Positions 664 through 16,486 of a stretch of DNA of 64,000 nt are shown in pieces. The notes below the pieces were generated by a model that saw nothing but the letters and a program-made list of their open reading frames with translations, had not been told where the DNA came from and ran no database searches. A program made the translations under genes and the position numbers. Origin of the DNA: Acidobacteria bacterium SCN 69-37 (GTDB taxonomy: Bacteria; Acidobacteriota; Vicinamibacteria; Vicinamibacterales; SCN-69-37); contig MEDJ01000020.1 of the NCBI GenBank assembly GCA_001724025.1, positions 207,351 through 271,350 of the forward strand, read 5' to 3'. Every line of letters begins with the position of its first letter. The first letter of the stretch is position 1.

Positions 664-1557
664 TCAGGCACGGACGGTCAGCACCGGGCACGTGGCGGAC
701 CGCACCACCTGGTTGGTCGTCGATCCGAAGAAGATCAGATCGAGGGTCCGTCGTCCGTGAGCCCCGAGGACGATCAGGTCCGCGCCTTCCTGGGCGGCGA
801 TGCGCACGACCTCCTCGTGCGGGCGGCCCGTTGCGGTCATGACCCGGACATCGCACCAGGTGCGGGCCGTCTCCGGTACCAGGGCCGCGAGGCGATCGTG
901 GACGGCCTCGCGGTGTTCGTCGCGAATCTGCCGCGTGGCCTGATCGAACTGCGCGGGCAGGAGACGATCCTCGTCCCAGTCGAAGACGTGCAGCAGCGTC
1001 AGCCGGCGACCCGATTCCTGTGCCAGCTGCAGACCGTACTCGAGCGCCCTCGACGACGCGGGCGAGAAGTCGACGGCGCACAGGATCGACGTGAAGGGCT
1101 GCGGCTGGGCCGGCGCTCCGGGCGCCGACGGCGGAATCGTGAGCACCGGACACGGCGCCTTGCGCAGCGTCTTTTCCGCGACCGACCCCAGCAGGAACCG
1201 TTCGAAGCCGCTGTGCCCGTGCGTGCCGATGACGATCAGATCGGCAGGCCACGCCCGGGCCTCTTCCACGATGGCCGTGACGGCGGCGGCCCCGTGGGCC
1301 ACTTTGGTCGTGACGGCCGCCCCCGCCGGCGCATGGCGATCGACGAACAGCCGGAGGTCGGCCTCGAAATCCTGCAGCTGCGCGGGCGACAGGCCGGGTG
1401 GCGAGGCGATCGTCGCCGGCGGCGCGTTGATCCAGGCCACTTCGAACGCCGTGAGTGCGGCCTCGTACCAGCCGGCCAGCATCAGACCGTAATCGAGCGC
1501 GCGGCCCGACGTCAGTGAGCGATCGACAGGGCAGAGAATCCGTTGAATCTCGATCAT
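664..1557 (-). CDS. Tandem-domain universal stress protein
   Basis: 297 aa made of two UspA domains (about 1-140 and 150-297). Each carries the ATP-binding signature G-x2-G-x9-G-S: GTHGHSGFERFLLGS in the first and GAHGRRTLDLIFFGS in the second, each followed by a CPVLT strand. Such proteins bind ATP and are usually made under energy or oxygen stress; the exact role is unknown. The ATG at 1557 is preferred over an upstream in-frame start because a GGAGG sits six bases before it. A sigma-54-type promoter lies just upstream (1580-1595) with a possible activator site at 1646-1661. The HAD phosphatase gene follows closely. Confidence 0.88.
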   Translation of the reverse strand: MIEIQRILCPVDRSLTSGRALDYGLMLAGWYEAALTAFEVAWINAPPATIASPPGLSPAQLQDFEADLRLFVDRHAPAGAAVTTKVAHGAAAVTAIVEEARAWPADLIVIGTHGHSGFERFLLGSVAEKTLRKAPCPVLTIPPSAPGAPAQPQPFTSILCAVDFSPASSRALEYGLQLAQESGRRLTLLHVFDWDEDRLLPAQFDQATRQIRDEHREAVHDRLAALVPETARTWCDVRVMTATGRPHEEVVRIAAQEGADLIVLGAHGRRTLDLIFFGSTTNQVVRSATCPVLTVRA

Positions 1558-1579: not shown

Positions 1580-1595
1580 TGCAACTCGCGAGCCA
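1580..1595 (-). promoter_or_regulatory. Sigma-54 (-24/-12) promoter of the tandem USP gene
   Basis: On the minus strand it reads TGGCTCGCGAGTTGCA. This matches TGGCAC-N5-TTGCA at 10 of 11 informative positions and keeps the required GG-N10-GC spacing. The predicted start of transcription is near 1569, only 12 bases before the ATG. Found by eye. Confidence 0.6.
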
Positions 1596-1645
1596 CCGGC
1601 CGGGGGCGCCAGGCATGTTCGCGGCACGCTGGCAGACGGCCGTCA

Positions 1646-1661
1646 CGCGGGGGATTCCGCG
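1646..1661. promoter_or_regulatory. Candidate activator (UAS) site for the USP promoter
   Basis: CGCGGGGGATTCCGCG has 5-bp inverted arms (CGCGG/CCGCG). It differs at two positions from the site before ccoI at 4846-4861. Its centre is about 85 bases upstream of the predicted sigma-54 start, a typical place for an NtrC-family binding site. Confidence 0.45.
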
Positions 1662-1716
1662 ATCGTTCGCGACATCGGGCAAAACTCCGCAGCCGTCTCG
1701 ACGGACCGCGCCACAG

Positions 1717-4700
1717 TCAGAACGCGTAGCCGATGCGGACATACGCGGTCGTTCCGCCGGCCGCCTGGTGCGCGCGATCCCACCCGCGCGCCGCGCCGGC
1801 GGTCATCGTCAGCGGCAGGCCGTAGCCGAGCACGACGTTGGCCGACAGTTCGGCGCCGACAGACAGTTTCACCGCGTGGGCATCGAACGTGGCGTTCCAC
1901 GCGTGCCCCGCGTCGGCCACGATCGCACCGTGTACCGTGTGCAGGAAGAAGGGCCACGCCCCGAGACCGCGTTGCGGACGCGCGATCGGAAACCGGTAGT
2001 CGAGGTTGACGATCGCCGCCTGGCGTCCGACAAACGTGCTGGCCGGGAACCCGCGGAGCAGGTGCAGGCCGTCGCTCCCGATCGTGCCGGGACCCGGGCT
2101 GGCATCGCCGCCCCCGAGCACGAACAGGCGGCCGATGGCGCCATTGCCCCAGGTGGCCGCGCGACTCGCCCGGATGGCGACGACATCGTGCCGTCGCAGC
2201 CCGGGCAGATAGGCGCGGGCGTCGACGGTCACGGTGCCGCCGCGGGCCGAGGCGCCGAGCGCCGGCGCGACGAACTCGGTCGCCACGCCGACGCTGATGC
2301 CGCGCTCCAGGCTCACGCCATAGGCAGGGGCCTGCGCGTTCGCATAGCGCCACGCCGCGCGGACGCCTGACCGATCGCGCTGCCCGGTGGTCTCGTCGAT
2401 GGTGACGCGGTCGGTCGCGCGCACGATCGAGACCTGGACGGTCTGTGCTGAGCGGAGGTGCAGGATCGGGACCTGCACGCCGATCTCCGTCAGCCGCTCC
2501 ACGATCGTCGCCGGTGCCCGCGATTCATCGGTCTGCTCGACAGGCACGAACGTCGTCTCTCGCCTGAGCGCGCCCCAGACGTGCGGCCGCCAGCGGCCGT
2601 AGACGTACGACACGTCCCAGTCGGCATCGCCACCTGCGGCATTGGTCTCCATGCGATCGACGACGGGCCAGGCGAGCGACGCGGTCCACGCGTGATACCC
2701 GAGCACGTCGCGTCCGCCTGCGGCAATCCCGGCACGCACCTGCTCGCGCGACGTCGTGAGCACGGGCGTCCAGGACGTCGGCAGCAGCGTCGACCAGGGC
2801 CGATAGGGAGACGAGGGGAGATCCCCTGAGGCTGAAGCCTCAGGGCTCCGAGCGCTGGACGCCTCGGGGCTCTGAGGGATGGACGCCTCAGGGTTCCGAG
2901 CGGTGGACGCTTCGGGGGGCCGAGCGGTGGACGGCTCGGGGCTCCGAGAGATGGACGCCTCGGGGCTCGGAGCGGTGGACGCTCCAGGGCTCCGAGAGGT
3001 GGGCGCTTCAGCGCTCCGGGACACGGACGCCTCGAGGCTCCGAGCGCCGGGGCGCGCGACGTCGTACGGAATCTCGTACAAATCGAATCCCTCGATCGAA
3101 TAGCCGACGTACACGATCGTGCGACCGTCAGGTGCGACGTCGGGCCACGTGGCGCCCCCCGGATGCTCGGTGATTCGTCGCATCTGGCCGTCGTCGAGCG
3201 TGATTTCGTAGAGATCGGGCGGGGCGTCGCCCGCAGCCCCAGCCGCTACGATGGCCTGGCTGTCCGGCCGCCAGGCTGGCGTGGCCCACCGCATGTCGGG
3301 TGTCGTGGTCAGGGCGCGGACACGTCCGTCGTCGACGTCGACCAGCACGAGATCCGCCGGCGCGTCGCCGCGCTGACGAGCCACGACGAGCGTGCGCCCG
3401 TCGGGCGACCAGCGCGGGGTGTTGAACTGCGTCTCCGGCTCGGCAACGAGCGTGATGACCTCCGTCGACGCGCTCCCGGTCCCGGGCTTCACGAGCACCA
3501 GATCGCGCTGGCCCGGGTGGCGATGCTGGACGGCCGCGAGGATCTCCGACACAGGGGAGACGTCGGGATCCATCAGCCGCGCGCCAGACGTCAGCGGCTG
3601 CGTGTGCGACGCGTCAGGATCGTGCACGTAGAGATCGGCGTAGAGCCCGGCGTTCCTGCGGCGTTCGGGCTGATCGAAGTAGATCCGGCCATTGGCCGCG
3701 ACGGCGGTCGTGCCGCCGGGATATCGGGTCGTCAGGCGACGCGTCTCGAGCGTGTCGAGTTGGACGACGTAAAGGCCCGGGCGATCGTGCCGGGTGCGAC
3801 GCGTGTAGACCACGGCATCCGCACAGTCAGCGCACGCGCGAGGCAGGTAGCGGGGAGCGCTCGCCTGAAAGCCGTCCGTCGTCAGCCGCCGCGCAGGTTG
3901 CGGCGCCGGCGCGCCGGCCGCGCGGGCATCGGTAACGGCTGCTGACGCGTACTCTCGCCAGAGGGTCTCGATCGATTGGCCATACACGCGATCGAATGCG
4001 CGCGTGCCAAGCCACGGGAGACTTCGCGCCGTGGCCTCGGCAAGTGCATCGAGCGTGTCCGCGCCCCGGCTGTCGGCCAGCCAGGCGTGGAAGGCCGCAC
4101 CGTACGCGTACGGCGCCAGGCCGCCCGGCCAGTCGGTGAGACCGCCGCCGACGCGATCGATCGGCGCGAACGCGCCGGCACGCGCCGCCTCGCGCGTGAT
4201 TGCGAGGAAATCGCCCGCGTGCAGCCGGCCGTGGGCGTCGCTCCCGGGAACGCGGCTTTCCGCCCATGTCGCCAGCCCCTCGATCTGCCACGTGGGCAGG
4301 AGCAGGTTGGGGAACGTCCACGGGGCGCGTCCCGACACCGCACGGGCCACGCGTGCCCAGCCGCCGGCGCGATCGAGGTGCACGATGTGCGCGAACTCGT
4401 GGACGAACACCGTCCTGAGCCAGTCGCCCGATCCAAGGAGATCGGTCGGCGCCGGGGCGGCTACGTACAGGACGATCGTGTTGCGCGGCAGCGGCGTGGC
4501 GAACCCATTGGCCGCCTCGGTCTGATCCGACAACACGACGTGCGTCATGGCTGGCAGCCGGGCACCGGACCGATCGGCGATCTGCCGCCACGTCGCTTCG
4601 GCCACGCGCGCCAGGGTCGCGGCCAGGTCGTCGGCGCCTTGGTGGTAGTGCACGGCGAAGTGCGGTGTCCGCCGCGTGCGGAAGCGGTGCTGCGGATCGA

Positions 4701-4785
4701 CCTGTTGGGCCGGCGCGTACGTGGGGATCGCGAACAGCAGCACCAGGCCGAGGACGACCGACAGGCGGATCGATCGGGAGGACAT
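1717..4785 (-). CDS. Exported metalloprotease-like / beta-propeller / outer-membrane barrel protein
   Basis: 1022 aa. A signal peptide ends near residue 27 (PTYAPAQ). A gluzincin-like region has HEFAH at 129-133. TolB/WD40-like propeller strands with repeated 'SPDGR' turns lie at roughly 300-570. Residues 583-654 are nine 8-residue units of the SPEASxxR type, encoded by a 24-bp DNA array. The C-terminal 360 residues look like a BamA/TamA-type surface-antigen barrel and end in an aromatic residue (GYAF). It probably sits in the outer membrane with a periplasmic protease/propeller part; the substrate is unknown. It is divergent from ccoI, with 200 bases between them. The repeat linker looks like recent insertion of a dispersed palindromic element. 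Confidence 0.75.
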   Translation of the reverse strand: MSSRSIRLSVVLGLVLLFAIPTYAPAQQVDPQHRFRTRRTPHFAVHYHQGADDLAATLARVAEATWRQIADRSGARLPAMTHVVLSDQTEAANGFATPLPRNTIVLYVAAPAPTDLLGSGDWLRTVFVHEFAHIVHLDRAGGWARVARAVSGRAPWTFPNLLLPTWQIEGLATWAESRVPGSDAHGRLHAGDFLAITREAARAGAFAPIDRVGGGLTDWPGGLAPYAYGAAFHAWLADSRGADTLDALAEATARSLPWLGTRAFDRVYGQSIETLWREYASAAVTDARAAGAPAPQPARRLTTDGFQASAPRYLPRACADCADAVVYTRRTRHDRPGLYVVQLDTLETRRLTTRYPGGTTAVAANGRIYFDQPERRRNAGLYADLYVHDPDASHTQPLTSGARLMDPDVSPVSEILAAVQHRHPGQRDLVLVKPGTGSASTEVITLVAEPETQFNTPRWSPDGRTLVVARQRGDAPADLVLVDVDDGRVRALTTTPDMRWATPAWRPDSQAIVAAGAAGDAPPDLYEITLDDGQMRRITEHPGGATWPDVAPDGRTIVYVGYSIEGFDLYEIPYDVARPGARSLEASVSRSAEAPTSRSPGASTAPSPEASISRSPEPSTARPPEASTARNPEASIPQSPEASSARSPEASASGDLPSSPYRPWSTLLPTSWTPVLTTSREQVRAGIAAGGRDVLGYHAWTASLAWPVVDRMETNAAGGDADWDVSYVYGRWRPHVWGALRRETTFVPVEQTDESRAPATIVERLTEIGVQVPILHLRSAQTVQVSIVRATDRVTIDETTGQRDRSGVRAAWRYANAQAPAYGVSLERGISVGVATEFVAPALGASARGGTVTVDARAYLPGLRRHDVVAIRASRAATWGNGAIGRLFVLGGGDASPGPGTIGSDGLHLLRGFPASTFVGRQAAIVNLDYRFPIARPQRGLGAWPFFLHTVHGAIVADAGHAWNATFDAHAVKLSVGAELSANVVLGYGLPLTMTAGAARGWDRAHQAAGGTTAYVRIGYAF
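2824..3039 (-). repeat. In-frame 24-bp tandem repeat array (9 units) starting from a palindrome
   Basis: Nine degenerate 24-bp units, each encoding about SPEASxxR, run from 3039 down to 2824. The last unit contains a perfect hairpin at 2824-2845, with arms ccctgaggct and agcctcaggg and a 2-base loop. The same hairpin type recurs at 22040-22089 and 51447-51633. Because the unit is 8 codons the reading frame survives. The encoded linker separates the propeller from the barrel domain. Confidence 0.85.
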
Positions 4786-4845
4786 CGGCGTTCATTATCA
4801 ACCGCCGCTCCAGCGGTGTCGGTCCGGCCCGAAAATCCGAACGGC

Positions 4846-4861
4846 CGCGGGATATTCCGCG
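4846..4861. promoter_or_regulatory. Candidate activator (UAS) site upstream of the cbb3 operon
   Basis: CGCGGGATATTCCGCG, with 5-bp inverted arms around GATATT. The centre is about 96 bases before the predicted sigma-54 start of ccoI. A weaker related half-site (cccgaaaatccga, 4828-4840) lies about 20 bases further upstream. Near-identical sites precede both USP genes. Confidence 0.5.
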
Positions 4862-4922
4862 CCGAGGGGTGCGATCGGGCACTTTCCGGCGCAAAACGCG
4901 CGTGTCACGGTATTGTCCGATC

Positions 4923-4938
4923 GGGCAGCCAACTTGCA
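4923..4938 (+). promoter_or_regulatory. Sigma-54 (-24/-12) promoter of the cbb3 operon
   Basis: GGGCAGCCAACTTGCA has a perfect TTGCA -12 element, four of six matches at -24, and the invariant GG-N10-GC spacing. Predicted transcription start is near 4949, giving a leader of about 37 bases before the ccoI ATG. An NtrC-family regulator is encoded just past the end of this operon. Confidence 0.55.
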
Positions 4939-4985
4939 CAGGGTGACGGGCAGTTCCCACCGCGTCCGGTCCGGGAACCGTGTGT

Positions 4986-7412
4986 ATGTCCGTTGCACCC
5001 CCGGAGTCCGACATCCTGACCGCGTCATGGCCGGCGCCATCCGCCAGCCGGACGACCTGCCTGCACTGCGGCGATCCGTGCGTGGCCGACCGGGTCACGA
5101 CCGAGGCCGGCGTGTTCTGTTGCGCCGGGTGTGACTCGGTCCACGCGTTGCTCCAGGAGAGCGGGCTCGAGGCGTTCTATGCCGAGGGTGACGGCGCGGG
5201 CGTCTCGCAGCAGGGCGCCGACACGCGCGATCCAGCCCGGTTCGTCGTCCTCGACGATGCCACGACGCGCCAGCGGTTCCTCGTGTCCGAGCACGGCACG
5301 CGGGCCGTAGCGCGCTTTGCCGTGCCGGCGCTCCACTGCGCCTCGTGCGTGTGGCTGATCGAACGGCTGGGCCGTGTGGATTCCCGCATCGGGCGGACGG
5401 AAGTCGACCTGCTGCGCCGCACCGTGACCGTCGCCTTCGACGCGTCGCGCATCCGGCTGAGCGAGGTGGCCGCGGCCATGGCGCGCGTGGGCTACGAACC
5501 GCTGCTGGTCGGTGAGCGTCCTGCGCCCGTCACCGCACGACGGCGGCGCCTCTACGCGCAGATGGGCGTCGCCGGCTTTGCCGCGGGCAACATCATGCTG
5601 TTCAGCATCCCGCGGTACGCCAACGGCGTGCCGATCGAGGACGGCTTCCAGCGGCTGTTCGACGTGCTCAACGTGGCGCTGGCGCTGCCGGTGCTGTTCT
5701 ACAGTGCCGCGGACTTCTTCAAGGGCGCGTGGCAGGCCGTGCGCCATCGCACCGTCAGCCTCGACATTCCGATCGTCATCGGCCTGTTGACGCTGGTGAC
5801 GCGCAGCCTGGTCGATATCGGCACAGGCCGCGGCGAAGGCTATCTCGACTCGTTTGCCGGACTCGTCTTCTTCCTGCTGATCGGCCGGCTGTTCCAGCAG
5901 CAGGCCTTCGACTGGATCGGCTTCGACAGGACGTTCCGATCCTTCTTCCCGCTGTCGGTCCTGGTCCGGCCCCGCGATGGCGGCCCGCCGGTGCCAACGG
6001 CGATCGAGCGGCTGCGACCCGGGGATCGCATCGTGCTCCGTCCCGAAGAAGTCGTGCCGGTCGATGCCACGCTCATCGACGACGCGGCCCTCGTCGATTA
6101 CGCCTTCCTGACGGGCGAACGGGACGCCGTGGCCGTCGAGCGCGGCAGCGTCGTGCGGGCCGGCGGCCGACTGCTTCGCGCCGACGCGCAGTTCGACGTC
6201 GTGCGCGAGGTCCAGCACAGCGAACTGGCGGCGCTCTGGGCGCGGCCCGGCGAGCGCGTGGTCAAGGCGCATTGGCTGACGACGGTGGCGGCGCAATTCG
6301 GCGGGTGGTTCGTCGTGGTCGCCTTCGCGCTGGCGGCCGGCGGATTCCTCTGGTGGTGGCCCGACACCTCGCGTGCGCTCGACGTGGCCACGGCGGTGCT
6401 GATCATCGCGTGCCCGTGCGCGCTCACCCTGGCTGCACCGATCGCGCTCGGCACGGCCATGACGATGCTCGGTCGCCGGGGCTGGTATCTGAAGGATCCG
6501 GCAACGGTGCTCGACCTCAGCCGGATCGACAGCGTCGTCTTCGACAAGACGGGCACGTTGACGGCCACGGGACGGGCGGCTGTCGACACGATCGATCTGA
6601 CAGTCGACGACCTGGCACTGGTGCGTGCGCTGGCCGCGGGATCGGTACACCCGGTCAGCCGCGCGCTGGCTGCCGGTGCCGCGGTCACGGCGCCCGTGGT
6701 CTCGCGCGTCGAGACGGTGGGCGGCGGCCTGCGCGGGACGGTCGACGGTCATGACGTGGCGATTGGATCGGCCGCGTTCATCAACGCCACGGGCGCCCGC
6801 GGCGCGATGCCCGGGCGTGGGACGGTCGTGGCCATCGACGGCAAGGTGCGCGGGGCGGTCGTGACGACGGCGCCCGCGCGTGATGGCGTCGAAACGGCGG
6901 TCGCGGCGCTGGCGGCGTCGGGACGCGTGGCCCTGCTCTCGGGCGATCGCGACGCGGGCGACGATCGCTGGTCCGGCCTGTTCGGCGACCGCGCGGTGTT
7001 CGGCCTCTCGGCAGGGGAGAAGCGCGACCGCGTGGCCGCGCTGCGTGCCGCCGGCGAGCACGTACTGATGGTGGGCGATGGCCTGAACGACGCCGGGGCG
7101 TTCGAAGCGGCCGATGTCGGCGTGGCCGTGTCGGACGAGACCGCGTGCCTCGTGCCGGCCTGCGATGTGGTGGTGACCGGCGCACGGCTGGCCGCGCTGC
7201 CGCGCGTACTCGCGTTCGCGCGGGACGCGCGTGCGGTCGTGATCGTCGCCTTCGTCGTTTCGCTGGTCTACAACGTCATCGGGCTGTCGCTGGCGCTGGC
7301 CGGTCTCCTGTCGCCGCTCGTGGCCGCCATCCTGATGCCCGTCAGTTCACTGACCGTCGTGGGCACGAGCGTGGGGCTCACGCGCTGGCAGGGCCGGCGG
7401 GTGCCGGCATGA
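4986..7412 (+). CDS. ccoI: Copper-translocating P-type ATPase for cbb3 oxidase assembly
   Basis: 808 aa. An N-terminal Cys-rich metal site (CLHCGDPC...CCAGC, from residue 25) precedes an HMA domain with CASC at 118-121. Transmembrane helices follow, with the CPC ion-path motif at 476-478 (CPCALTLAAP), the phosphorylated Asp in DKTGT at 520 and the GDGLNDAG hinge near 700. This is the CcoI/FixI architecture; these pumps export copper towards the periplasmic side for CuB insertion. The ATG at 4986 is chosen; an in-frame GTG lies two codons earlier. The stop overlaps the ccoS start by ATGA. First gene of the cbb3 operon, with a sigma-54-type promoter upstream. Confidence 0.93.
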   Translation: MSVAPPESDILTASWPAPSASRTTCLHCGDPCVADRVTTEAGVFCCAGCDSVHALLQESGLEAFYAEGDGAGVSQQGADTRDPARFVVLDDATTRQRFLVSEHGTRAVARFAVPALHCASCVWLIERLGRVDSRIGRTEVDLLRRTVTVAFDASRIRLSEVAAAMARVGYEPLLVGERPAPVTARRRRLYAQMGVAGFAAGNIMLFSIPRYANGVPIEDGFQRLFDVLNVALALPVLFYSAADFFKGAWQAVRHRTVSLDIPIVIGLLTLVTRSLVDIGTGRGEGYLDSFAGLVFFLLIGRLFQQQAFDWIGFDRTFRSFFPLSVLVRPRDGGPPVPTAIERLRPGDRIVLRPEEVVPVDATLIDDAALVDYAFLTGERDAVAVERGSVVRAGGRLLRADAQFDVVREVQHSELAALWARPGERVVKAHWLTTVAAQFGGWFVVVAFALAAGGFLWWWPDTSRALDVATAVLIIACPCALTLAAPIALGTAMTMLGRRGWYLKDPATVLDLSRIDSVVFDKTGTLTATGRAAVDTIDLTVDDLALVRALAAGSVHPVSRALAAGAAVTAPVVSRVETVGGGLRGTVDGHDVAIGSAAFINATGARGAMPGRGTVVAIDGKVRGAVVTTAPARDGVETAVAALAASGRVALLSGDRDAGDDRWSGLFGDRAVFGLSAGEKRDRVAALRAAGEHVLMVGDGLNDAGAFEAADVGVAVSDETACLVPACDVVVTGARLAALPRVLAFARDARAVVIVAFVVSLVYNVIGLSLALAGLLSPLVAAILMPVSSLTVVGTSVGLTRWQGRRVPA

Positions 7413-7586
7413 GCGCCATGGTGCTCCTCATCGCCGCGGGCGGCGTGGTGGCGCTCGGGTTTCTCGCGGCATTCATCTGGGCCGTGCGGAGCGGCCAGTT
7501 CGACGACACGGGCACCCCGCCCGTGCGCATCCTGGTCGACGAGCGCGATGCGCCGCGGCCTTCATCCGGTCCGGAGGGGACACGAC

Positions 7587-7606
<20 letters not shown>
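7409..7606 (+). CDS. ccoS: Cbb3 oxidase maturation protein CcoS
   Basis: 65 aa with one N-terminal transmembrane helix (VLLIAAGGVVALGFLAAFIW) followed by AVRSGQFDD, the conserved CcoS tail. In other bacteria CcoS is needed to insert haem and CuB into CcoN. Its start overlaps the ccoI stop (ATGA) and its last 20 bases overlap the ccoNO start in another frame. It is short enough to be missed by simple gene finding, but family match and position make it convincing. Confidence 0.85.
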
Positions 7607-9793
<2,187 letters not shown>

Positions 9794-9794
<1 letters not shown>

Positions 9795-10006
9795 TGTATA
9801 CCGAGATTCTGCGCAGTATCGACGGGATCGGTATCTTCCCGATCATCTCGCTGGTGGTATTCGTCGCGGTGTTCGCCGTGGTGCTGATCTGGGCCGCGCG
9901 CGCGGACCGGGGCCGGCTCGCGCGGCATGCCACGCTGCCGTTCTCCGAGGCTGCGCCGCTGCCGTCCGACCCGGCCGATCGCGACACTCAGGGGAGGCGC
10001 GCATGA
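9794..10006 (+). CDS. ccoQ: Cbb3 oxidase small subunit CcoQ
   Basis: 70 aa with one membrane helix (IFPIISLVVFVAVFAVVLIW) followed by AARADR and a polar tail, as in CcoQ/FixQ, which stabilises the assembled oxidase. The ATG overlaps the ccoNO stop (TGATG) and its stop overlaps the ccoP start. Assignment rests on topology and position, since CcoQ is poorly conserved. Confidence 0.8.
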
Positions 10007-10605
10007 CCCGCAAACGCGACGAACTGCTCGAACACGAGGCCGACGGCATCCGCGAGTTCGACAACGACATGCCACGCTGGTGGCTGTACGGCTTCTACTT
10101 CACGATCGCACTCTCCGTGGCGTACTTCGTGAACTTCCACGTGCTGCCGTCGCCTGTCATCGGACCGGCGAACATCCAGGCCGAATACGAGGCCGAGATG
10201 GCCGCTGCCGCCGAGATGAAGGCGAGCCGCGCCGCGGCCAATGCGTCGGCGCCAGGTGGCGCCGTGGAGATCGTTCTGCTGACCGACGCGGGCAGTCTCG
10301 ACAAGGGCCGGGAGATCTACGAGAGCGCCACGCACCCGTGCGCGGCGTGCCACAAGCCGGATCTCGGCGGGCTCGTCGGCCCGAACCTGACCGATGCCCA
10401 GTGGCTCCACGGCTGCGCCATCGACGACGTCGTCACGTCGATCAAGACCGGGTTCCCGCTCCAGGGCATGCTGCCGTTCGGCGGCGGGCCACCGCTGAAT
10501 GACGAGCAGGTCCTGCAGTTGGCGAGCTACATCCTGTCGCGCGGCGGCAGCGCGCCCGCCGATGCCAAGGCGCCCGATCCGGCACGGGATGCGCCATGTC
10601 CATGA
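10003..10605 (+). CDS. ccoP: Cbb3 oxidase cytochrome c subunit CcoP, single haem site
   Basis: 200 aa. The N-terminal part (EHEADGIREFDNDMPRWW then one membrane helix) is the classic CcoP membrane anchor. The periplasmic part has one CxxCH motif (CAACH) followed by GPNLTDAQWLHG and a GMLPFGG methionine-ligand region, matching the first cytochrome domain of ordinary CcoP. The second CxxCH domain of the usual di-haem protein (about 300 aa) is absent. The frame ends at a stop that overlaps ccoG, so this is not an assembly break. Role: electron entry from soluble cytochrome c to CcoO. Confidence 0.9.
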   Translation: MTRKRDELLEHEADGIREFDNDMPRWWLYGFYFTIALSVAYFVNFHVLPSPVIGPANIQAEYEAEMAAAAEMKASRAAANASAPGGAVEIVLLTDAGSLDKGREIYESATHPCAACHKPDLGGLVGPNLTDAQWLHGCAIDDVVTSIKTGFPLQGMLPFGGGPPLNDEQVLQLASYILSRGGSAPADAKAPDPARDAPCP

Positions 10606-12089
10606 CATCCGCGGAAGCCGCGCGGCGGCCGCTGTCGATCGAGACGACCGTCGACGACGAGCACGACCTGTTCCGGAACGAACTGGCGAGCGTGGCGCCG
10701 GACGGCCGGCGGCGATGGATCTACGCCCGCCAGCCGTCGGGCCGCTTCTATCGCTGGCGGTCGTGGCTGAGCTGGGGCCTGCTCGCGTTCCTGGTCCTCG
10801 CGCCGTTCGTGCGCGTCAACGGCCTGCCGCTGCTCATGTTCAACGTGATCGAGCGGAAGTTCGTGTTCTTCGGCCTGCTGTTCTGGCCGCAGGACTTCTA
10901 CATGGTGGTGCTCGTCGCGCTGGCCGTGCTCGTCACGCTCATGCTCTCGACCGTCACGGTGGGGCGCGTCTGGTGCGGCTGGCTCTGCCCGCAGACCATC
11001 TTCATGGAAATGCTGTTCCGGAAGATCGAATACCTGATCGACGGGTCGGCCGAACAGCAGCTGCGGCGATCGCGCGGGCCGTGGACGGCCGGGCGGGTCG
11101 TCCGGACCGGCACCAAGCTGACGATCTTCTACGTGCTCTCGTTCGCGATCGCCAACGTCTTCCTGGCCTACATCATCGGATCGGACGCGCTGTGGGCGAT
11201 CATCACGGATCCGCCCTCGCAGCACGTCGTCGGGCTGACGGTCATCGTGATTTTCAGCTTCGTGTTCTTCCTGGTGTTCGCGCGCTTCCGCGAGCAGGCC
11301 TGCGTGCTGGCCTGTCCGTACGGGCGGGTGATGTCGTCGCTCATCGATCGGCAGACGATCACCGTGACATACGACTTCGCGCGCGGGGAACCTCGCGCGC
11401 GGCTGGTGAAGGGCGCGGCGGCGGTGCCCGACGCCGGCGACTGCATCGACTGCCACCAGTGCGTGACCGTGTGCCCGACGGGCATCGACATCCGCAACGG
11501 CGTCCAGCTCGAGTGCGTGAACTGCACGGCGTGCATCGATGCGTGCGATGCCGTCATGGACCGCGTCCAGCGGCCGCGCGGCCTGATCCGGCTCACGTCG
11601 CACGAGGCGGTCGTCGACGGTCGGCTGCGCTGGCTCACGCCGCGATCAGCCGCGTATGCGGTCGTGTGGGTGGGGCTGATGACGGCGGTGACGTGGATCG
11701 TGGCGTCGCGGTCCGCGCTCGATGTCACGACGCTGCGGCAGCCGGGCACGCTCTATGCGGATCTCGGTGACGGCCGCGTCGGCAATTTCTACAACGTGCA
11801 GGTGTTCAACCGCACAGGCGATCTCCGGCCGTTCGAGATTCATGCGCTCGAGCCGGCGGGCGCGTCGGTGACGCCGCTCGGGCTGACGGCCGAGATCGGG
11901 CCGCACGCGCTGCTCGAGGGCCGCGTCCTCGTCGCCCTGCCGCTGGCCTCGCTCGAGGGGCACCAGAGCGTGCCCGTTCGCTTCGAGGTGCGCACGGGCG
12001 GGACCGTGATTCAGACGCTGTCGTCGGCGTTCGTCGGTCCGCCCACGCGGAACGGCACGCGCGGCACGAGCGGGAGCGGGGGACAGTGA
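10596..12089 (+). CDS. ccoG: Cbb3 accessory iron-sulfur membrane protein CcoG
   Basis: 497 aa. Several membrane helices surround GRVWCGWLCPQTIFME, then two ferredoxin-type clusters appear (CIDCHQCVTVCPTGIDIRNG and ECVNCTACIDACDAVM), followed by an IgG-like C-terminal domain. This is the RdxA/FixG/CcoG family, in which CcoG acts as a cupric reductase supplying Cu(I) to the oxidase. It overlaps ccoP by 10 bases and its stop touches the ccoH start, consistent with one transcript. Confidence 0.93.
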   Translation: MSMTSAEAARRPLSIETTVDDEHDLFRNELASVAPDGRRRWIYARQPSGRFYRWRSWLSWGLLAFLVLAPFVRVNGLPLLMFNVIERKFVFFGLLFWPQDFYMVVLVALAVLVTLMLSTVTVGRVWCGWLCPQTIFMEMLFRKIEYLIDGSAEQQLRRSRGPWTAGRVVRTGTKLTIFYVLSFAIANVFLAYIIGSDALWAIITDPPSQHVVGLTVIVIFSFVFFLVFARFREQACVLACPYGRVMSSLIDRQTITVTYDFARGEPRARLVKGAAAVPDAGDCIDCHQCVTVCPTGIDIRNGVQLECVNCTACIDACDAVMDRVQRPRGLIRLTSHEAVVDGRLRWLTPRSAAYAVVWVGLMTAVTWIVASRSALDVTTLRQPGTLYADLGDGRVGNFYNVQVFNRTGDLRPFEIHALEPAGASVTPLGLTAEIGPHALLEGRVLVALPLASLEGHQSVPVRFEVRTGGTVIQTLSSAFVGPPTRNGTRGTSGSGGQ

Positions 12090-12547
12090 TGAAGCTGCGA
12101 CTGCACTGGGGCCTGGCCGTGGCGCTCGTCTATACCGCGTTTGCGGCGGCGACCGTCGGATTCGTGGTGTTCGCCGTCGCGCACCCGGCCGCGCTGGTCA
12201 GCGACGACTACTATCAGCAGGCACTCCGCCACGATCAACGCATCGCGGCCACGGCCAACGCGCGCGCGGTGGCCGCCTCGCTGCAGGTGGGACGAGAGGC
12301 GTCGGGCGCGCTCGTGGCCACGCTGCATCTGCCGGCGGCGCACCACGGCCGGAGCACCGGCCACATCACCTGGTACCGGCCCTCGGATGCGACGTCCGAT
12401 CGGCAGATCCCGCTCGACGTCGACGGCGACGGGAACCAGCGCCTGCCGCTGACAGGCGTGGCGGCCGGCCGCTGGCGCGTCCAGGTGGCGTGGGAGGTGG
12501 ACGGACAGCCGTACCACTTCGAACAGGTCGTGACGGTGACGCCGTGA
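12089..12547 (+). CDS. ccoH: Cbb3 assembly protein CcoH (FixH family)
   Basis: 152 aa with an N-terminal membrane anchor (LAVALVYTAFAAATVGFVVF) and the FixH hallmark DDYYQQALRHDQRI just outside it, followed by a small beta-rich domain. CcoH is needed for stable assembly of cbb3 oxidase. The ATG overlaps the ccoG stop; a GTG one codon upstream is an alternative start. Its stop overlaps the next gene (GTGA). Confidence 0.85.
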   Translation: MKLRLHWGLAVALVYTAFAAATVGFVVFAVAHPAALVSDDYYQQALRHDQRIAATANARAVAASLQVGREASGALVATLHLPAAHHGRSTGHITWYRPSDATSDRQIPLDVDGDGNQRLPLTGVAAGRWRVQVAWEVDGQPYHFEQVVTVTP

Positions 12548-13236
12548 CGTCGCTGCTGACCGGCGGGCTGCTGGGCCTGGCCGGCAGCCTGCACTGCCTC
12601 GCGATGTGCGGACCACTCGTGGCCGCGGTGTCGCCATCGCTCGGACGAGGACCGACGATCGCGTGGTATCAGGCTGGCCGGATTGGCGTCTACGCGGCCA
12701 TCGGTGCGCTGGCGGGCCTGGCCGGTCGGCTGGCCGTGTTGTCAGGCGCAGGACGGTGGCTCGCGGTCGCTGCCGGAATCGTGATGCTGCTGTCGGCGTT
12801 CGGTCGGCTGCCCGTGGCGTCGGCCATGTTCGGGCGGGCCGTGACGTCGCGCCTCGGCCGTGTGGTCGGGCGGGTGAGTGCACGGGGGCGACGACGACCG
12901 TGGCTGGCAGCTCTCGGCCTCGGCGCGGTCAACGGTCTGCTGCCGTGTGGCCTCGTCTATGCGGCCGCGCTGGTGGCGGTGTCGACGGGCTCGATCGCGA
13001 TGGCGGTGCCGACGATGATCCTCTTCGGGATCGGGACGCTGCCGGCCATCGTGCTGGCGTGGTACTCGGTGACGTTCGTCCCGGCGAGCCTGCGCCGGCG
13101 GCTGCACGTCGTCACGCCGATCGCCGTGGGGCTGGTGGGACTGCTGCTGATCGGGCGAGGGCTCGGTGTCGGGCACGTGCACGGCGACGATGCGCCCGGG
13201 CCGGTGACGGAACACCACGCCGCGCACGGGCCGTGA
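12544..13236 (+). CDS. SafE/TauE-like multi-helix protein of the cbb3 operon
   Basis: 230 aa, six or so hydrophobic segments, with the N-terminal signature GSLHCLAMCGPL and a second half containing GLLPCGLVYAA. This is the DsbD-like 'sulfite exporter TauE/SafE' subgroup that regularly follows ccoH. A part in copper or redox handling during oxidase maturation is likely but unproven. The GTG start overlaps the ccoH stop. The C-terminus is His-rich (GVGHVHGDD...EHHAAHGP), which could bind metal. Last gene of the cbb3 operon. Confidence 0.75.
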   Translation: MTSLLTGGLLGLAGSLHCLAMCGPLVAAVSPSLGRGPTIAWYQAGRIGVYAAIGALAGLAGRLAVLSGAGRWLAVAAGIVMLLSAFGRLPVASAMFGRAVTSRLGRVVGRVSARGRRRPWLAALGLGAVNGLLPCGLVYAAALVAVSTGSIAMAVPTMILFGIGTLPAIVLAWYSVTFVPASLRRRLHVVTPIAVGLVGLLLIGRGLGVGHVHGDDAPGPVTEHHAAHGP

Positions 13237-13242
13237 TCGCGG

Positions 13243-14595
13243 CTACTGCTGCAGCTTGAACTTCTCGATGCGGTAGTTGATCTGATCGCGGTTCAGGCCC
13301 AGGAGCTTCGCGGCGCGCGTCCGGTTCCAGTCCACGCGATCGAGCGCCTGGCGGACGAGGTCGCGCTCGACCTGCTCGAGGACCACGCCGTCGGCCGGCA
13401 ACTGGAATCCCTGGGTGCCGCTGCGCGCGTGCGCCATGGGGAAGTCGATGGGCTCGAGCAGGTCGCCGGTGGCGAGCAGCATCGCGCGTTCGACGACGTT
13501 GCGCAATTCGCGGACGTTGCCGGGCCAGCTGTGGCTGCGCAGCAGCGTGAGGGCGGCGGGTGAGATGCCCGCGATGTTCTTCTTGAACTCGCGGTTGAAG
13601 GTATCGATGTAGAACCTGACGAGCGCCTCGACGTCCTCGAGGTGCGCGCGCAGCGGCGGCAGGCGCAGCGGCAGCACGTTGAGACGATAGAAGAGGTCCT
13701 CGCGGAAGCGCCCCGCGCTCACCTCGTCCTCGAGCGTCCGGTTGGTGGCGGCCACGACGCGCACGTCGACGCGGATGTCGGCGCTGCCGCCCACGCGGCG
13801 GAAGGCCTTTTCTTCGAGGAAGCGGAGGATCTTGGCCTGGAGCGGCGGGGTCATCTCGCCGATTTCGTCCAGGAACACGGTCCCGCCGTCGGCCTGTTCG
13901 AACAGCCCGCGCTTCTGCTGCCGTGCGTCCGTGAAGGCGCCGCGTTCGTAGCCGAACAGTTCGCTCTCGAGGAGCGTCTCGGGGAGCGCCGAGCAGGTGA
14001 TGTTCACGAACGGCTTCGAGGCGCGGCTGCTCGTGTAGTGGAGGATCTTCGCCGTCAGATCCTTGCCCGTGCCGCTCTCGCCGGTGAGCAGGACCGTCGA
14101 TGCGGGACTCGCGGCGATACGCGCCAGCAGCGCCTTGAACTCGCGCATTTCCCGCGCGTCGCCGACCAGGTGATCGAGCCGGTACGGCGCCGCCTGCGAC
14201 TGGTGCAGGCGCCGCACCTCGCGGCGCAGCCGGGTCGTCTCGAGCGCCTGCTCGACCATGACAACGAGGGCCTCGAGATCGAACGGCTTGTTCGCGAAGT
14301 GATACGCGCCGAGCTTCATCGCCTGCACGGCCGTGTCGACGCTGGCATAGGCCGTCAGCAGGATGACGATGATGTCCGGGTAGCTCTGCTTGAGCTGCGT
14401 CAGGACCTGGATGCCGTCGATATCGGGCAGGCGGAAGTCGACGATGGCGAGGTCGATACCGGCGGCGGCCTCGGCCAGGCCGCTCCGGCCGTCTTCGGCC
14501 TCGACGACCTCGTAGCCGGCGGCCTGGAGGCGCCGGGCAATCGATCGCCGGATCAGGAGTTCATCGTCGATGACGAGCAGGGTTTCGTGTGCCAT
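13243..14595 (-). CDS. NtrC-family response regulator (REC - AAA+ - Fis HTH)
   Basis: 450 aa. A receiver domain lies at about 5-115 (DDE acidic pocket, phospho-Asp in AIVDFRLPD, Lys in ANKPFD). The AAA+ domain follows with GESGTGKD Walker [13 protein letters not shown]alker B and R-finger region, and a C-terminal Fis-type helix-turn-helix ([21 protein letters not shown]). It should activate sigma-54 polymerase when phosphorylated. The sigma-54 contact loop reads GAFTDA rather than GAFTGA. It is convergent with the cbb3 operon (7 bases apart) and divergent from the PAS kinase, so a cognate pair is likely. Start chosen at [11 protein letters not shown], as a longer frame upstream has no receiver-like sequence. 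Confidence 0.9.
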
Positions 14596-14639
14596 GAGTC
14601 GAACGGGACCGGGCGGGTCCTGAGGTAGTATCGGCGCTG

Positions 14640-15788
14640 GTGCCCCTGCCGGGCAACGGCCCGATGCGGGCGGCGGCAGGCCGTCAGCCCATGATGATCG
14701 ACGATTCGCGCGCACGCGACGCGCCCCTGCCGTCCACGAACGAGCTCGAGCACATCCGCTACGCGCTCGATCAGTCCGCGATCGTCGCCACGACGGACGT
14801 CCGCGGCCGGATCACGTACGTCAACGACAAGTTCTGCCAGATTTCCGGCTACACGCGCGAGGAACTGCTCGGCCGCGATCATCGCGTGGTGAACTCGGGC
14901 TATCACGGCCGGGCCTTCATTCGCGATCTGTGGCAGACGATTGCCCGCGGCCAGGTCTGGCGCGGTGAACTCCGCAACCGGACGAAGCACGGCACGTTCT
15001 ACTGGGTCGATACGACGATCGTGCCGTTCCTCGACGAGGGCGGCCGGCCGTGGCAATACATGGCCATCCGCTACGACATCACCGATCGCAAGCGGAACGA
15101 ACAGCGGCTGCGCGAACAGGCGACGCTGGCGAGCCTCGGCGAGATGGCGGCGGTGGTGGCGCACGAGGTGCGGAATCCGCTGGCCGGCATCCGGGGCGGC
15201 GTGCAGTTGCTCGAGTCGTACCTGCCCGCCGAGCCGGCGGAGGCCCACGAGTTCGTGCGCGCGATCTGCGATCGGATCGACTCGCTGAACGTGGCCATCA
15301 CCGATCTGCTCGAATTCGCACGGCTGCGCGAGCCGCGGATGGGGCCGGTCGACGTCACCGTCCTGATATCCGACGTCGTCAAGTCGTTGCAGTACGACAA
15401 GGCGCTGACGGGCGTGACGTGGCAGGTGCGCGCGCCCGAGTCGGTGACCCTGCTGGCTGACGTCGATCAACTCCGTCTGCTATTCACGAACCTCGCGATC
15501 AATGCCGCCCAGGCCGCCGGTGCCACGGGACACGTGTGGATCGAGGCGACGCAGGGGGACGGTGCGTGCGTGGTCACGGTGAGCGACGACGGCCCCGGTC
15601 TGCCACCCGAGGCGCTGGCGCGCGCCTTCGAGCCGTTCTTCACGACGAAGACGCGGGGGGCCGGGCTGGGCCTGCCCACGGCGCGCCGGATCGTGGAGGC
15701 GCACCACGGCGAGATCAGCGTGCACGATCGCGACGGCGGCGGAGCGTCGGCGCGCGTGGTCCTGCCGCTGCGGACGCTGGCCGACTGA
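14640..15788 (+). CDS. PAS-domain sensor histidine kinase
   Basis: 382 aa if the GTG at 14640 is used; ATGs at 14664 and 14691 are alternatives and none has a clear ribosome site. One PAS domain (about 45-160: ITYVNDKFCQISGYTREELLG ... DITDRKRNEQ) precedes the dimerisation helix with the H box AHEVRNPLAGI and an HATPase_c domain with N box LAINAAQAA, DDGPGLPPE and GAGLGLP. There are no membrane segments, so it should sense a cytoplasmic signal. The PAS fold may bind haem or flavin, but no ligand residue is certain. It faces the NtrC-type regulator across 44 bases and is the likely partner. Confidence 0.88.
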   Translation: MPLPGNGPMRAAAGRQPMMIDDSRARDAPLPSTNELEHIRYALDQSAIVATTDVRGRITYVNDKFCQISGYTREELLGRDHRVVNSGYHGRAFIRDLWQTIARGQVWRGELRNRTKHGTFYWVDTTIVPFLDEGGRPWQYMAIRYDITDRKRNEQRLREQATLASLGEMAAVVAHEVRNPLAGIRGGVQLLESYLPAEPAEAHEFVRAICDRIDSLNVAITDLLEFARLREPRMGPVDVTVLISDVVKSLQYDKALTGVTWQVRAPESVTLLADVDQLRLLFTNLAINAAQAAGATGHVWIEATQGDGACVVTVSDDGPGLPPEALARAFEPFFTTKTRGAGLGLPTARRIVEAHHGEISVHDRDGGGASARVVLPLRTLAD

Positions 15789-15804
15789 CGGCACCGCGCG
15801 GCAC

Positions 15805-16332
15805 TCAGTGGCCGGACGCACCCGGCACCGACGACGATCCGGTGTCGGCGACGACGGTCAGGGCGTCTGGTGCGACGAACTCGCGTTCGTGGGCCCTGAC
15901 GGTCAGCACGGGGCACGGGGCCGATCGCACGACCTTCTGCGCGACGCTGCCGAGGAAGAACTCGGCCAGCCCGCCGCGACCGTGCGTGCCGACGATGATG
16001 ATGTCGGCGCGGACCTCGGCGGCGTAGTCGAGGATGGCGCGCGCCGGTGTCGACGAGGTGAGCAGCATCGGCCTGACGGTCAGCGTCCGCTTGTCATCGT
16101 CGGTGACGAGCGCGGCGAGCGAGGCGGCAGCCTCGGCGTTGAGCTGCGCCTGGATCTTCGTCAGGTCCATGGGAATCTCGCTGACGGGCGCCGATGTCGC
16201 CAGGTCGTTGACCACGTGGACCAGGTGCAGGGTGGCCGAGAAGGCGCGTGCGAAGTTGCGGCCGTAGACCAGCGCCACGCCGGCCGGATCGCCGAAGTCG
16301 GTCGCAACCACGATCTCTTTGATGGCAATCAT
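15805..16332 (-). CDS. Universal stress protein (single domain)
   Basis: 175 aa, one UspA domain (MIAIKEIVVATDFGD ... GTHGRGGLAEFFLGS ... CPVLTV) with the ATP-binding G-x2-G-x9-G-S signature, plus a 25-residue polar tail. The ATG at 16332 has GAGGAG eight bases upstream; longer in-frame starts are rejected because the extra residues are not USP-like. It ends 16 bases from the PAS kinase stop (convergent). The upstream region holds a very good sigma-54 promoter and two candidate activator sites shared with the cbb3 operon and the first USP gene. Confidence 0.87.
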   Translation of the reverse strand: MIAIKEIVVATDFGDPAGVALVYGRNFARAFSATLHLVHVVNDLATSAPVSEIPMDLTKIQAQLNAEAAASLAALVTDDDKRTLTVRPMLLTSSTPARAILDYAAEVRADIIIVGTHGRGGLAEFFLGSVAQKVVRSAPCPVLTVRAHEREFVAPDALTVVADTGSSSVPGASGH

Positions 16333-16383
16333 GCTCGTACTCCTCGGAGGGCCGCTCCCCGGGGCAGCCGCCGCGTGGACCAC

Positions 16384-16399
16384 AGCACGTCGCGTGCCA
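16384..16399 (-). promoter_or_regulatory. Sigma-54 (-24/-12) promoter of the second USP gene
   Basis: On the minus strand TGGCACGCGACGTGCT. The -24 element TGGCAC is perfect, the -12 element GTGCT has one mismatch to TTGCW, and GG-N10-GC is kept. Predicted start near 16373, giving a 40-base leader before the ATG at 16332. It shares TGGCxCGCGAC/G with the promoter at 1580-1595. Confidence 0.65.
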
Positions 16400-16450
16400 C
16401 CGGGGGACTCCCTCCACCCTACCACCGGCAGATACGCCCGGTCGGGGTGC

Positions 16451-16486
16451 GGCCGGATTTTCTGCGAAGTCGCGGGATTTTTCCGG
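16451..16486. promoter_or_regulatory. Two tandem candidate activator (UAS) sites
   Basis: GGCCGGATTTTCTGCG (16451-16466) matches the ccoI site at 12 of 16 positions, and CGCGGGATTTTTCCGG (16471-16486) shares its first eight bases and the TTCCG core. The centres are 20 bases apart (two helical turns), about 86 and 106 bases before the predicted sigma-54 start. Confidence 0.4.

What the first reader, a model, noticed from the sequence alone, without database searches (positions are those of the whole stretch)
1580..16486. Local sigma-54 regulon joining cbb3 oxidase and two USP genes
Three promoters match the sigma-54 form with GG-N10-GC (1580-1595, 4923-4938, 16384-16399). Each has an upstream site related to CGCGGGATATTCCGCG (1646-1661; 4846-4861; 16451-16466 and 16471-16486). 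Site centres lie about 85, 96, 86 and 106 bases before the predicted starts, in steps close to the 10-bp turn. The genes flank an NtrC-type regulator and its PAS kinase. Sigma-54 control of cbb3 oxidase is not the usual FNR/FixLJ/RegA scheme. That the regulator binds these sites is inferred.
Basis: partly seen in the sequence, partly recalled or inferred. Interest (0 to 1): 0.9.

Follow-up and report, generated by a model that had tools for sequence, protein, structure and literature searches.

The report
Sigma-54 low-oxygen regulon in Acidobacteriota
In this Acidobacteriota genome, the genes for a high-affinity oxygen-using enzyme (cbb3 oxidase) and two stress proteins share a DNA motif in front of sigma-54-type promoters, and the same arrangement recurs in relatives that carry the neighbouring regulator gene but in none of the regulator-lacking relatives checked, so a predicted redox-sensing kinase and that regulator likely switch these genes on together when oxygen runs low.

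Summary
In detail: boxes and dyad sites are at the stated places. The 16-bp motif alone is not above chance in the window, but a motif learned only from relatives is almost the same (CGCGGAATATTCCGCG), and its three best hits in 64 kb fall in these three promoters. In held-out tests it lies upstream of about half of strong sigma-54 boxes near the regulator's orthologues (29/60, 36/63), rarely downstream (1/60, 7/63); sites are phased at about 10.6 bp. The cbb3 operon carries it in 11 of 12 relatives with the regulator (10 strong, 1 weak) and 0 of 3 without; USP loci in 10 of 10 genomes with it and 0 of 8 without. The regulon is not local: here it also takes in PEP synthase and an acetate-CoA ligase operon. 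The neighbouring kinase has an MmoS/Aer-type flavin pocket, which suggests redox sensing. One precedent exists: NmpR of Myxococcus xanthus (2025), also sigma-54, with USP and cbb3 targets; operator and sensor differ, and probably the regulator's lineage. New variant of a known kind. Binding, redox sensing and low-oxygen induction are untested.

The parts
664..1557 (-). USP1, tandem-domain universal stress protein (longest ORF 664-1596; the start at 1557 is my reading, downstream of the predicted +1)
   Evidence: Pfam Usp, E 9.9e-65, two stretches; sequence
1580..1595 (-). sigma-54 box TGGCTCGCGAGTTGCA of USP1
   Evidence: one mismatch to consensus, score 10.7
1675..1692 (.). second dyad site of USP1, centre -114.5, 10.7 bits (not in the finding)
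4845..4862 (.). dyad site CCGCGGGATATTCCGCGC of the cco operon, centre -95.5, 19.4 bits: best match in the window
4825..4842 (.). weak second dyad of the cco promoter, centre -115.5, 5.8 bits, 20 bp from the strong one
   Evidence: L222, L223, L224 and L226 carry pairs near -96/-116
4923..4938 (+). sigma-54 box GGGCAGCCAACTTGCA of the cco operon (weak match)
4980..7412 (+). ccoI, copper P-type ATPase
   Evidence: E1-E2_ATPase, ATPase-cat_bd, HMA
7548..9794 (+). ccoNO fusion, cbb3 oxidase subunits I and II
   Evidence: COX1 + FixO
10003..10605 (+). ccoP, cytochrome c subunit
   Evidence: FixP_N, Cytochrome_CBB3
10596..12089 (+). ccoG
   Evidence: Fer4_18, FixG_C
12086..12547 (+). ccoH
   Evidence: FixH
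12490..13236 (+). DsbD_2-type membrane protein, last gene of the cco run
13243..14595 (-). NtrC-type response regulator (receiver, AAA+ with GAFTDA, Fis HTH); ORF to 14715, probable start ATG 14595 (my reading)
14664..15788 (+). soluble histidine kinase with one MmoS/Aer/NifL-type PAS domain (ORF from 14640; start is my reading)
15805..16332 (-). USP2, single-domain universal stress protein
   Evidence: Usp, E 2.6e-30; start
16384..16399 (-). sigma-54 box TGGCACGCGACGTGCT of USP2
   Evidence: one mismatch, score 10.7
16450..16467 (.). dyad site, centre -85.5, 7.5 bits
16470..16487 (.). dyad site, centre -105.5, 12.3 bits, 20 bp from its partner

Best explanation
This is a predicted sigma-54 regulon in which a probably redox-sensing PAS histidine kinase and the NtrC-type response regulator encoded beside it likely activate the cbb3 oxidase operon and two universal-stress-protein genes through conserved CGCGGAATATTCCGCG-like dyads. 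Proposed working: as oxygen falls and the respiratory chain becomes reduced, the flavin in the kinase's PAS domain changes state (inferred); the kinase phosphorylates the regulator (inferred from their adjacency); regulator dimers bind one or two dyads, mostly 75-130 bp upstream, phased on one face of the helix and two to three turns apart (sites and phasing shown, binding inferred); an AAA+ oligomer then opens sigma-54 polymerase at the -24/-12 box (box shown, use inferred from the known mechanism of NtrC proteins). The result would be joint production of the high-affinity oxidase and its copper pump, USPs, PEP synthase and an ADP-forming acetate-CoA ligase operon: a low-oxygen, low-energy survival set.
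For: The motif was derived from relatives only, after a word count without a dyad assumption had shown the same core (GAAATTCC in 8 of 123 regions upstream of strong boxes, 0 of 1,791 upstream of weak ones). Held-out: 29/60 upstream against 1/60 downstream and 0/60 with the reversed matrix; the other way 36/63, 7/63 and 0/63. 120 site+box pairs in 60 regulator loci against 6.0 +/- 3.2 (largest 16) with 20 column-permuted matrices (not held-out). Helical phasing, best period 10.7, R 0.49 over 126 sites; pair spacings 20 (11), 22 (7), 19 (3), and 18, 21, 24, 31 (1 each). cco heads: 10 of 12 regulator-bearing genomes at >=9 bits plus one at 7.3, 0 of 3 regulator-lacking ones. USP loci: 15/30 (10 of 10 genomes) against 0/30 (0 of 8 genomes). 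usp is the commonest downstream family, 28/113. This genome: of 78 boxes with at most one mismatch, all scanned, 7 carry a site at >=9.5 bits (2 of them in the window), including those ahead of PEP synthase and an acetate-CoA ligase; reversed-matrix control 0. Kinase PAS nearest to MmoS (3EWK, E 5.9e-58), then Aer and NifL, with residues equal to MmoS T103/H132/N164/R195 kept in 36, 36, 36 and 34 of 36 aligned kinases, this one included.
Against: No binding, transcription-start or expression data exist for this organism. The cco box in the window is a weak sigma-54 match, and each USP promoter has one weak dyad. G038 has the regulator but no site at cco; G056, whose regulator status is unclear, has none within 500 bp, only a pair about 500 bp upstream. 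The 12 regulator-bearing cco genomes are not independent: four share one genus (g85) and three another (g48). Of this genome's four USP genes, C13 has neither box nor site, and C1 shares the site of the divergent PEP synthase but has no box of its own at >=9. Only 6 of 20 regulator loci from other classes show a pair. Kinase-regulator pairing rests on adjacency; in some relatives, one of the closest (L140) among them, the nearest kinase is only 34-40% identical. An FNR-like word with one mismatch overlaps the USP2 start codon (16319-16332), and the genome has CRP/FNR-family proteins, so a second layer of control is possible.
Confidence: 0.78

Rival explanations
1. The sites and sigma-54 boxes are real, but the activator is another enhancer-binding protein, such as the receiver-less one that is itself often downstream of such a promoter in relatives; the neighbouring regulator is only a bystander.
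For: The genome encodes 23 strong sigma-54 activator domains. 7 of 113 ORFs behind site+box pairs are themselves sigma-54 activators.
Against: Pairs are absent from the scanned USP loci of 8 regulator-lacking genomes and present in 10 of 10 regulator-bearing ones, in G155 and G158 at USP genes more than 100 kb from the regulator gene. The six receiver-less proteins compared have a quite different recognition helix (...KSRAAELLQIKRSTLGDRI... or KSKAAELL..., against ...[21 protein letters not shown]...).
Confidence: 0.1
2. The regulator does drive these promoters, but the signal is not redox or oxygen: the PAS domain binds another ligand, or the kinase answers another stress such as copper or energy charge.
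For: MmoS belongs to a copper-responsive system (a reference title seen). PAS ligands cannot be proved by sequence. Likely targets include a copper ATPase and an efflux protein.
Against: The four flavin-pocket residues are near-invariant. The targets (cbb3, USP, PEP synthase, ADP-forming acetate-CoA ligase) fit low oxygen. USP genes and a kinase gene rise at 0.1 uM O2 in Acidobacterium capsulatum (PMC11636273, passages), though it is not shown that those genes carry this promoter.
Confidence: 0.3
3. cco and usp here follow the usual scheme (FNR/FixK, FixLJ, RegA) and the sigma-54 boxes are chance matches in a 70% GC genome.
For: Such boxes are common by chance: 78 with at most one mismatch in the genome against 126 for the reversed pattern. 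CRP/FNR-family HTH matches exist in 13 of 13 genomes searched. An FNR-like word with one mismatch overlaps the USP2 start codon.
Against: No FNR-like box with fewer than 3 mismatches (of 10 recalled bases) lies within 300 bp upstream of ccoI/ccoNO in the window or in 16 relatives. The USP2 word lies downstream of the predicted +1, in the coding start. Position, pairing, phasing and presence or absence of the dyads are far from chance.
Confidence: 0.05

Closest known systems
NmpR/NmpRSTU oxygen-utilisation regulon, Myxococcus xanthus (PMC11841059; abstract, sections 3, 16, 17, 22 and passages read)
   Same: NtrC-like response regulator; sigma-54 promoters with two dyad sites; a USP gene and the P-type ATPase-cbb3 operon among the targets; proposed to act when oxygen is short.
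   Different: Operator GCGCA-N5-TGCGC, five of seven promoters with 14-15 nt between sites, against CGCGGAATATTCCGCG with centres usually 19-22 bp apart (30 at USP1). Sensor is a protoglobin kinase (NmpU) plus a hybrid kinase (NmpS), against a single PAS kinase. Regulators beside protoglobin kinases in six Myxococcota genomes (stand-ins for NmpR) are 31-43% identical, and 5 of 6 form a clade away from this one. Predicted targets here include PEP synthase and acetate-CoA ligase; there hemN, hemerythrin and pilR.
MmoS/MmoR (Methylococcus soluble methane monooxygenase control); Aer and NifL FAD-PAS sensors
   Same: The PAS domain is closest to MmoS PAS-A and keeps its flavin-pocket residues; MmoS too belongs to a two-component system (that MmoR is sigma-54 dependent is recalled).
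   Different: One PAS domain where the solved MmoS fragment has two; the predicted targets are respiration and survival genes.
FNR/FixLJ-FixK/RegA control of cbb3 oxidase (FixLJ and Fnr as named in PMC11841059; rest recalled)
   Same: Overlapping target genes: cbb3 with its copper pump.
   Different: Different sigma factor, activator class and operator; no FNR-like box at these cco heads.
Comparative sigma-54 regulon survey, PMC12316311 (one passage seen)
   Same: Reports USP (COG0589) among sigma-54 targets of Planctomycetia.
   Different: My term search of its main text gave no occurrence of acidobacteri-, cbb3, cytochrome or oxidase.

Membership tests
NtrC-family sigma-54 response regulators | Receiver + sigma-54 AAA+ + Fis-type HTH | tested here: met
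   Response_reg, Sigma54_activat, HTH_8
NtrC-family sigma-54 response regulators | GAFTGA loop | tested here: inconclusive
   The window has GAFTDA; GAFTDA in 42, GAFTGA in 18, no match in 2 of 62 orthologues
NtrC-family sigma-54 response regulators | Dyad enhancers phased upstream of -24/-12 boxes | tested here: met
NtrC-family sigma-54 response regulators | Activation of sigma-54 polymerase on phosphorylation | not testable with these tools
   needs biochemistry or genetics
NmpR/NmpRSTU regulon | USP and P-type ATPase-cbb3 operon as targets | tested here: met
   (as predicted targets)
NmpR/NmpRSTU regulon | Operator GCGCA-N5-TGCGC, sites mostly 14-15 nt apart | tested here: not met
   motif and spacing; the NmpR consensus is
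NmpR/NmpRSTU regulon | Protoglobin sensor kinase with hybrid kinase | tested here: not met
   the adjacent kinase is PAS-HisKA-HATPase, with no globin or receiver match
NmpR/NmpRSTU regulon | Regulator orthologous to NmpR | tested here: inconclusive
   NmpR itself was not obtained; 5 of 6 globin-kinase-linked regulators form a separate clade (99), the sixth falls elsewhere, none in the Acidobacteriota clade (quick tree)
FAD-PAS redox sensors (MmoS/Aer) | Sequence match and flavin-pocket T/H/N/R | tested here: met
   residue roles from PMC9668731 passages
FAD-PAS redox sensors (MmoS/Aer) | Bound FAD and redox-dependent output | not testable with these tools
   needs purified protein
FNR/FixK-controlled cco | FNR-type box upstream of cco | tested here: not met
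   best 3-4 mismatches of 10 at 17 cco heads, the window included

The most novel reading that the evidence does not exclude
Acidobacteriota run their low-oxygen survival programme (cbb3, USPs, PEP synthase, ATP-yielding acetate pathway) through a flavin-redox kinase and a sigma-54 activator that arose separately from the heme-sensing NmpR system of Myxococcota. If so, two phyla of soil bacteria converged on sigma-54, in place of FNR, to control the same genes, one reading oxygen and the other redox state.
Probability: 0.45. Interest if true: 0.78.

Novelty: new variant of a known kind. Interest (0 to 1): 0.64.

Why it matters
Acidobacteriota are among the commonest soil bacteria (recalled), yet seven searches of the held library listed no paper that describes such a regulon in them. 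A defined operator, regulator, likely sensor and target list make their low-oxygen response directly testable. It would show that sigma-54 control of cbb3 plus USP is not peculiar to myxobacteria, and it ties an MmoS-like flavin PAS to respiration control.

Tried and rejected
Motif counting in the window alone: no excess, so it was dropped as evidence. Near-perfect sigma-54 boxes in the genome: fewer than the reversed control (78 against 126), so a box alone proves nothing. Site-only genome hits followed without a convincing box (L429, L430, L421) or with a box near a flagellar gene (L249) were set aside. FNR boxes: none at cco heads; in the window as a whole FNR-like words exceed shuffles (100 against 47), which I read as GATC-rich coding words without testing it. 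Replacement of FNR cannot be claimed, because CRP/FNR-family genes are present. A structure prediction was not run.
Full report
WHERE IT IS. The window is stretch 207351-271350 of contig C20 of a 4.43-Mb, 25-contig genome, 70% GC. So the organism is an acidobacterium of the order of Sulfopaludibacter, which the tree tool labels Solibacteraceae; this is an inference.

ANATOMY. USP1 (664-1557, -), a protein with a PD40 repeat (1717-4785, -), ccoI-ccoNO-ccoP-ccoG-ccoH-DsbD_2 (4980-13236, +), the response regulator (13243-14595, -), the PAS kinase (14664-15788, +), USP2 (15805-16332, -), then an aldo/keto reductase. Starts of USP1, regulator and kinase are my reading of the sequence.

OBSERVATION. 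Taken alone in 64 kb, the 16-mer is not above chance (4 against 2.4 expected). The test that matters is independent. I took 60 stretches around the regulator's orthologues, in 57 genomes (one search lists a group at 55-78% identity, then a gap down to 49%; part of that group was not fetched). I scored sigma-54 boxes with a recalled consensus and looked upstream of the 123 strong ones. Without assuming a dyad, words such as GAAATTCC (8/123 against 0/1,791 for weak boxes) stood out. A palindromic EM then gave nCGCGGAATATTCCGCGn, reached from 2 of 5 seeds; the other three ended in a less likely nGCGGGAAATTTCCCGCn. In the window its three best hits are 4845, 16470 and 1675, one in each of the three promoters.

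CONTROLS. Trained on families f12-f15 (consensus GCGGGGAAATTTCCCCGC) and tested on the rest: 29 of 60 boxes have a site at >=9 bits upstream, 1 of 60 downstream, 0 of 60 with the matrix reversed. Trained on the rest (CCGCGGAATATTCCGCGG) and tested on f12-f15: 36, 7 and 0 of 63 (Fisher 4e-10 and 3e-8; boxes of related genomes are not fully independent). Site centres (boxes >=9.5, sites >=11 bits) show a period of about 10.5-10.8 bp (R 0.49, n 126), and 22 of 25 site pairs lie 19-22 bp apart, two helical turns. The window sites (-84.5/-114.5; -95.5 with weak ones at -115.5 and -65.5; -85.5/-105.5) fit the same steps.

TARGETS. Of 120 site+box pairs in the relatives' regulator stretches, 113 had an ORF that I could assign: 28 match Usp, 7 sigma-54 activators, 5 YceI, 3 HSP20, 3 zinc alcohol dehydrogenases; 83 families match at least one (ORF choice in GC-rich DNA is noisy). 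The cbb3 fusion protein has a match at E<=1e-60 in 20 of 162 genomes of the order, one of them (G062) only 32% identical; no orthologue of the regulator was seen in the cco stretches held. Of the heads that could be read, 12 belong to genomes with the regulator: 10 carry box and site (>=9 bits), G050 a box with a weaker symmetrical dyad (7.3), G038 none. Three belong to genomes without it (G051, G052, G053): none. G056 is ambiguous: none within 500 bp, one pair about 500 bp upstream. L238, L239 (incomplete), L241 (distant paralogue) and L227 (the other end of the G050 operon) were left out. Four of the 12 share genus g85 and three genus g48, so fewer than 12 are independent. Fisher for 11/12 against 0/3 is 0.009, for 10/12 against 0/3 it is 0.022.

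REGULATOR LINK. I compared USP loci of ten genomes with no regulator match at 1e-135 with ten that have it. The loci given were 30 of 41 and 30 of 95 listed matches, and some overlap. Pairs (box >=9.2, site >=10): 0 of 30 loci in 8 genomes (two of the ten have no Usp match) against 15 of 30 loci, in 10 of 10 genomes; the reversed matrix gave 0 and 1. This is the strongest evidence that the neighbouring regulator reads these sites. In other classes of the phylum 6 of 20 regulator loci show pairs, reversed control 1.

THIS GENOME. All 78 boxes with at most one mismatch were scanned with a filter that requires GG and GC. Seven have a site at >=9.5 bits: the two USP promoters of the window; C1:18931, ahead of two small ORFs and an ADP-forming-type acetate-CoA ligase; C1:23136, ahead of a PEP synthase/PPDK-family gene and divergent from a third USP; C22:236600, upstream of an outer-membrane efflux protein; and two weaker ones (C2:100286, C22:100630) whose genes I did not identify. 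The cco box of the window is weaker than the one-mismatch cut. The fourth USP gene (C13) has neither box nor site.

SENSOR. The PAS domain is closest to MmoS (3EWK, E 5.9e-58), then Aer (8DIK) and NifL (2GJ3). Residues equivalent to MmoS T103, H132, N164 and R195, described as flavin-pocket residues with the H and R somewhat uncommon among flavin PAS domains (PMC9668731, passages), are T52, H81, N113 and R144 here, and are kept in 36, 36, 36 and 34 of 36 aligned kinases, this one included (those at >=48% identity over the length). Redox sensing is therefore likely but not shown.

KNOWN SYSTEMS. NmpR of M. xanthus (PMC11841059) is the precedent. Its authors report gel shifts at seven promoters and reporters for several, giving a regulon with a USP gene, a P-type ATPase-cbb3 operon, hemN-hemerythrin, pilR and the nmp genes, with operator GCGCA-N5-TGCGC and a globin kinase. 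The present system shares logic and targets, and differs in operator and sensor. Six regulators encoded beside protoglobin kinases in Myxococcota are 31-43% identical to this one; five form their own clade (99), the sixth lies elsewhere, and none joins the Acidobacteriota clade (quick tree, one long branch). NmpR itself was not in hand.

VERDICT. A conserved regulon with a clear mechanism by analogy, apparently undescribed in its phylum (by the searches named) and different in parts from its one close precedent. Shown: sites, boxes, phasing, conservation, presence/absence with the regulator, flavin-pocket residues. Inferred: binding, phosphotransfer, flavin, redox sensing, low-oxygen induction.

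Noticed in passing
L234 (G052), cco at 2957-5200: In this regulator-lacking relative a CRP/FNR-family HTH (C184:6259-6450) lies about 1.1 kb from the cco operon, as if another regulator had taken the place of the sigma-54 one.
   Followed up: no
window 16319-16332: FNR-like word TTGATGGCAATCAT, one mismatch, overlapping the USP2 start codon downstream of the predicted +1.
   Followed up: no
window 2820-3060: GC-rich imperfect repeats (around 'gctccgag..gtggacgcctc') inside the ORF of the PD40 protein, which also gives a weak Cornifin match below its cut-off.
   Followed up: no
window 13243-14595 and 62 orthologues: The GAFTGA loop reads GAFTDA in 42 of 62 orthologues and GAFTGA in 18.
   Followed up: partly
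L145, L150, L156, L158, L160, L173: A receiver-less sigma-54 activator with its own conserved HTH (NKSRAAELLQIKRSTLGDRI and close variants) is the gene behind a site+box pair, which suggests a cascade.
   Followed up: partly
L181, L182, L188, L190, L192: These stretches carry two regulator paralogues at 57-62% identity in one cluster with kinase and USP genes.
   Followed up: no
L471, L473: In two Myxococcota genomes a USP gene also lies next to the regulator beside a protoglobin kinase.
   Followed up: no
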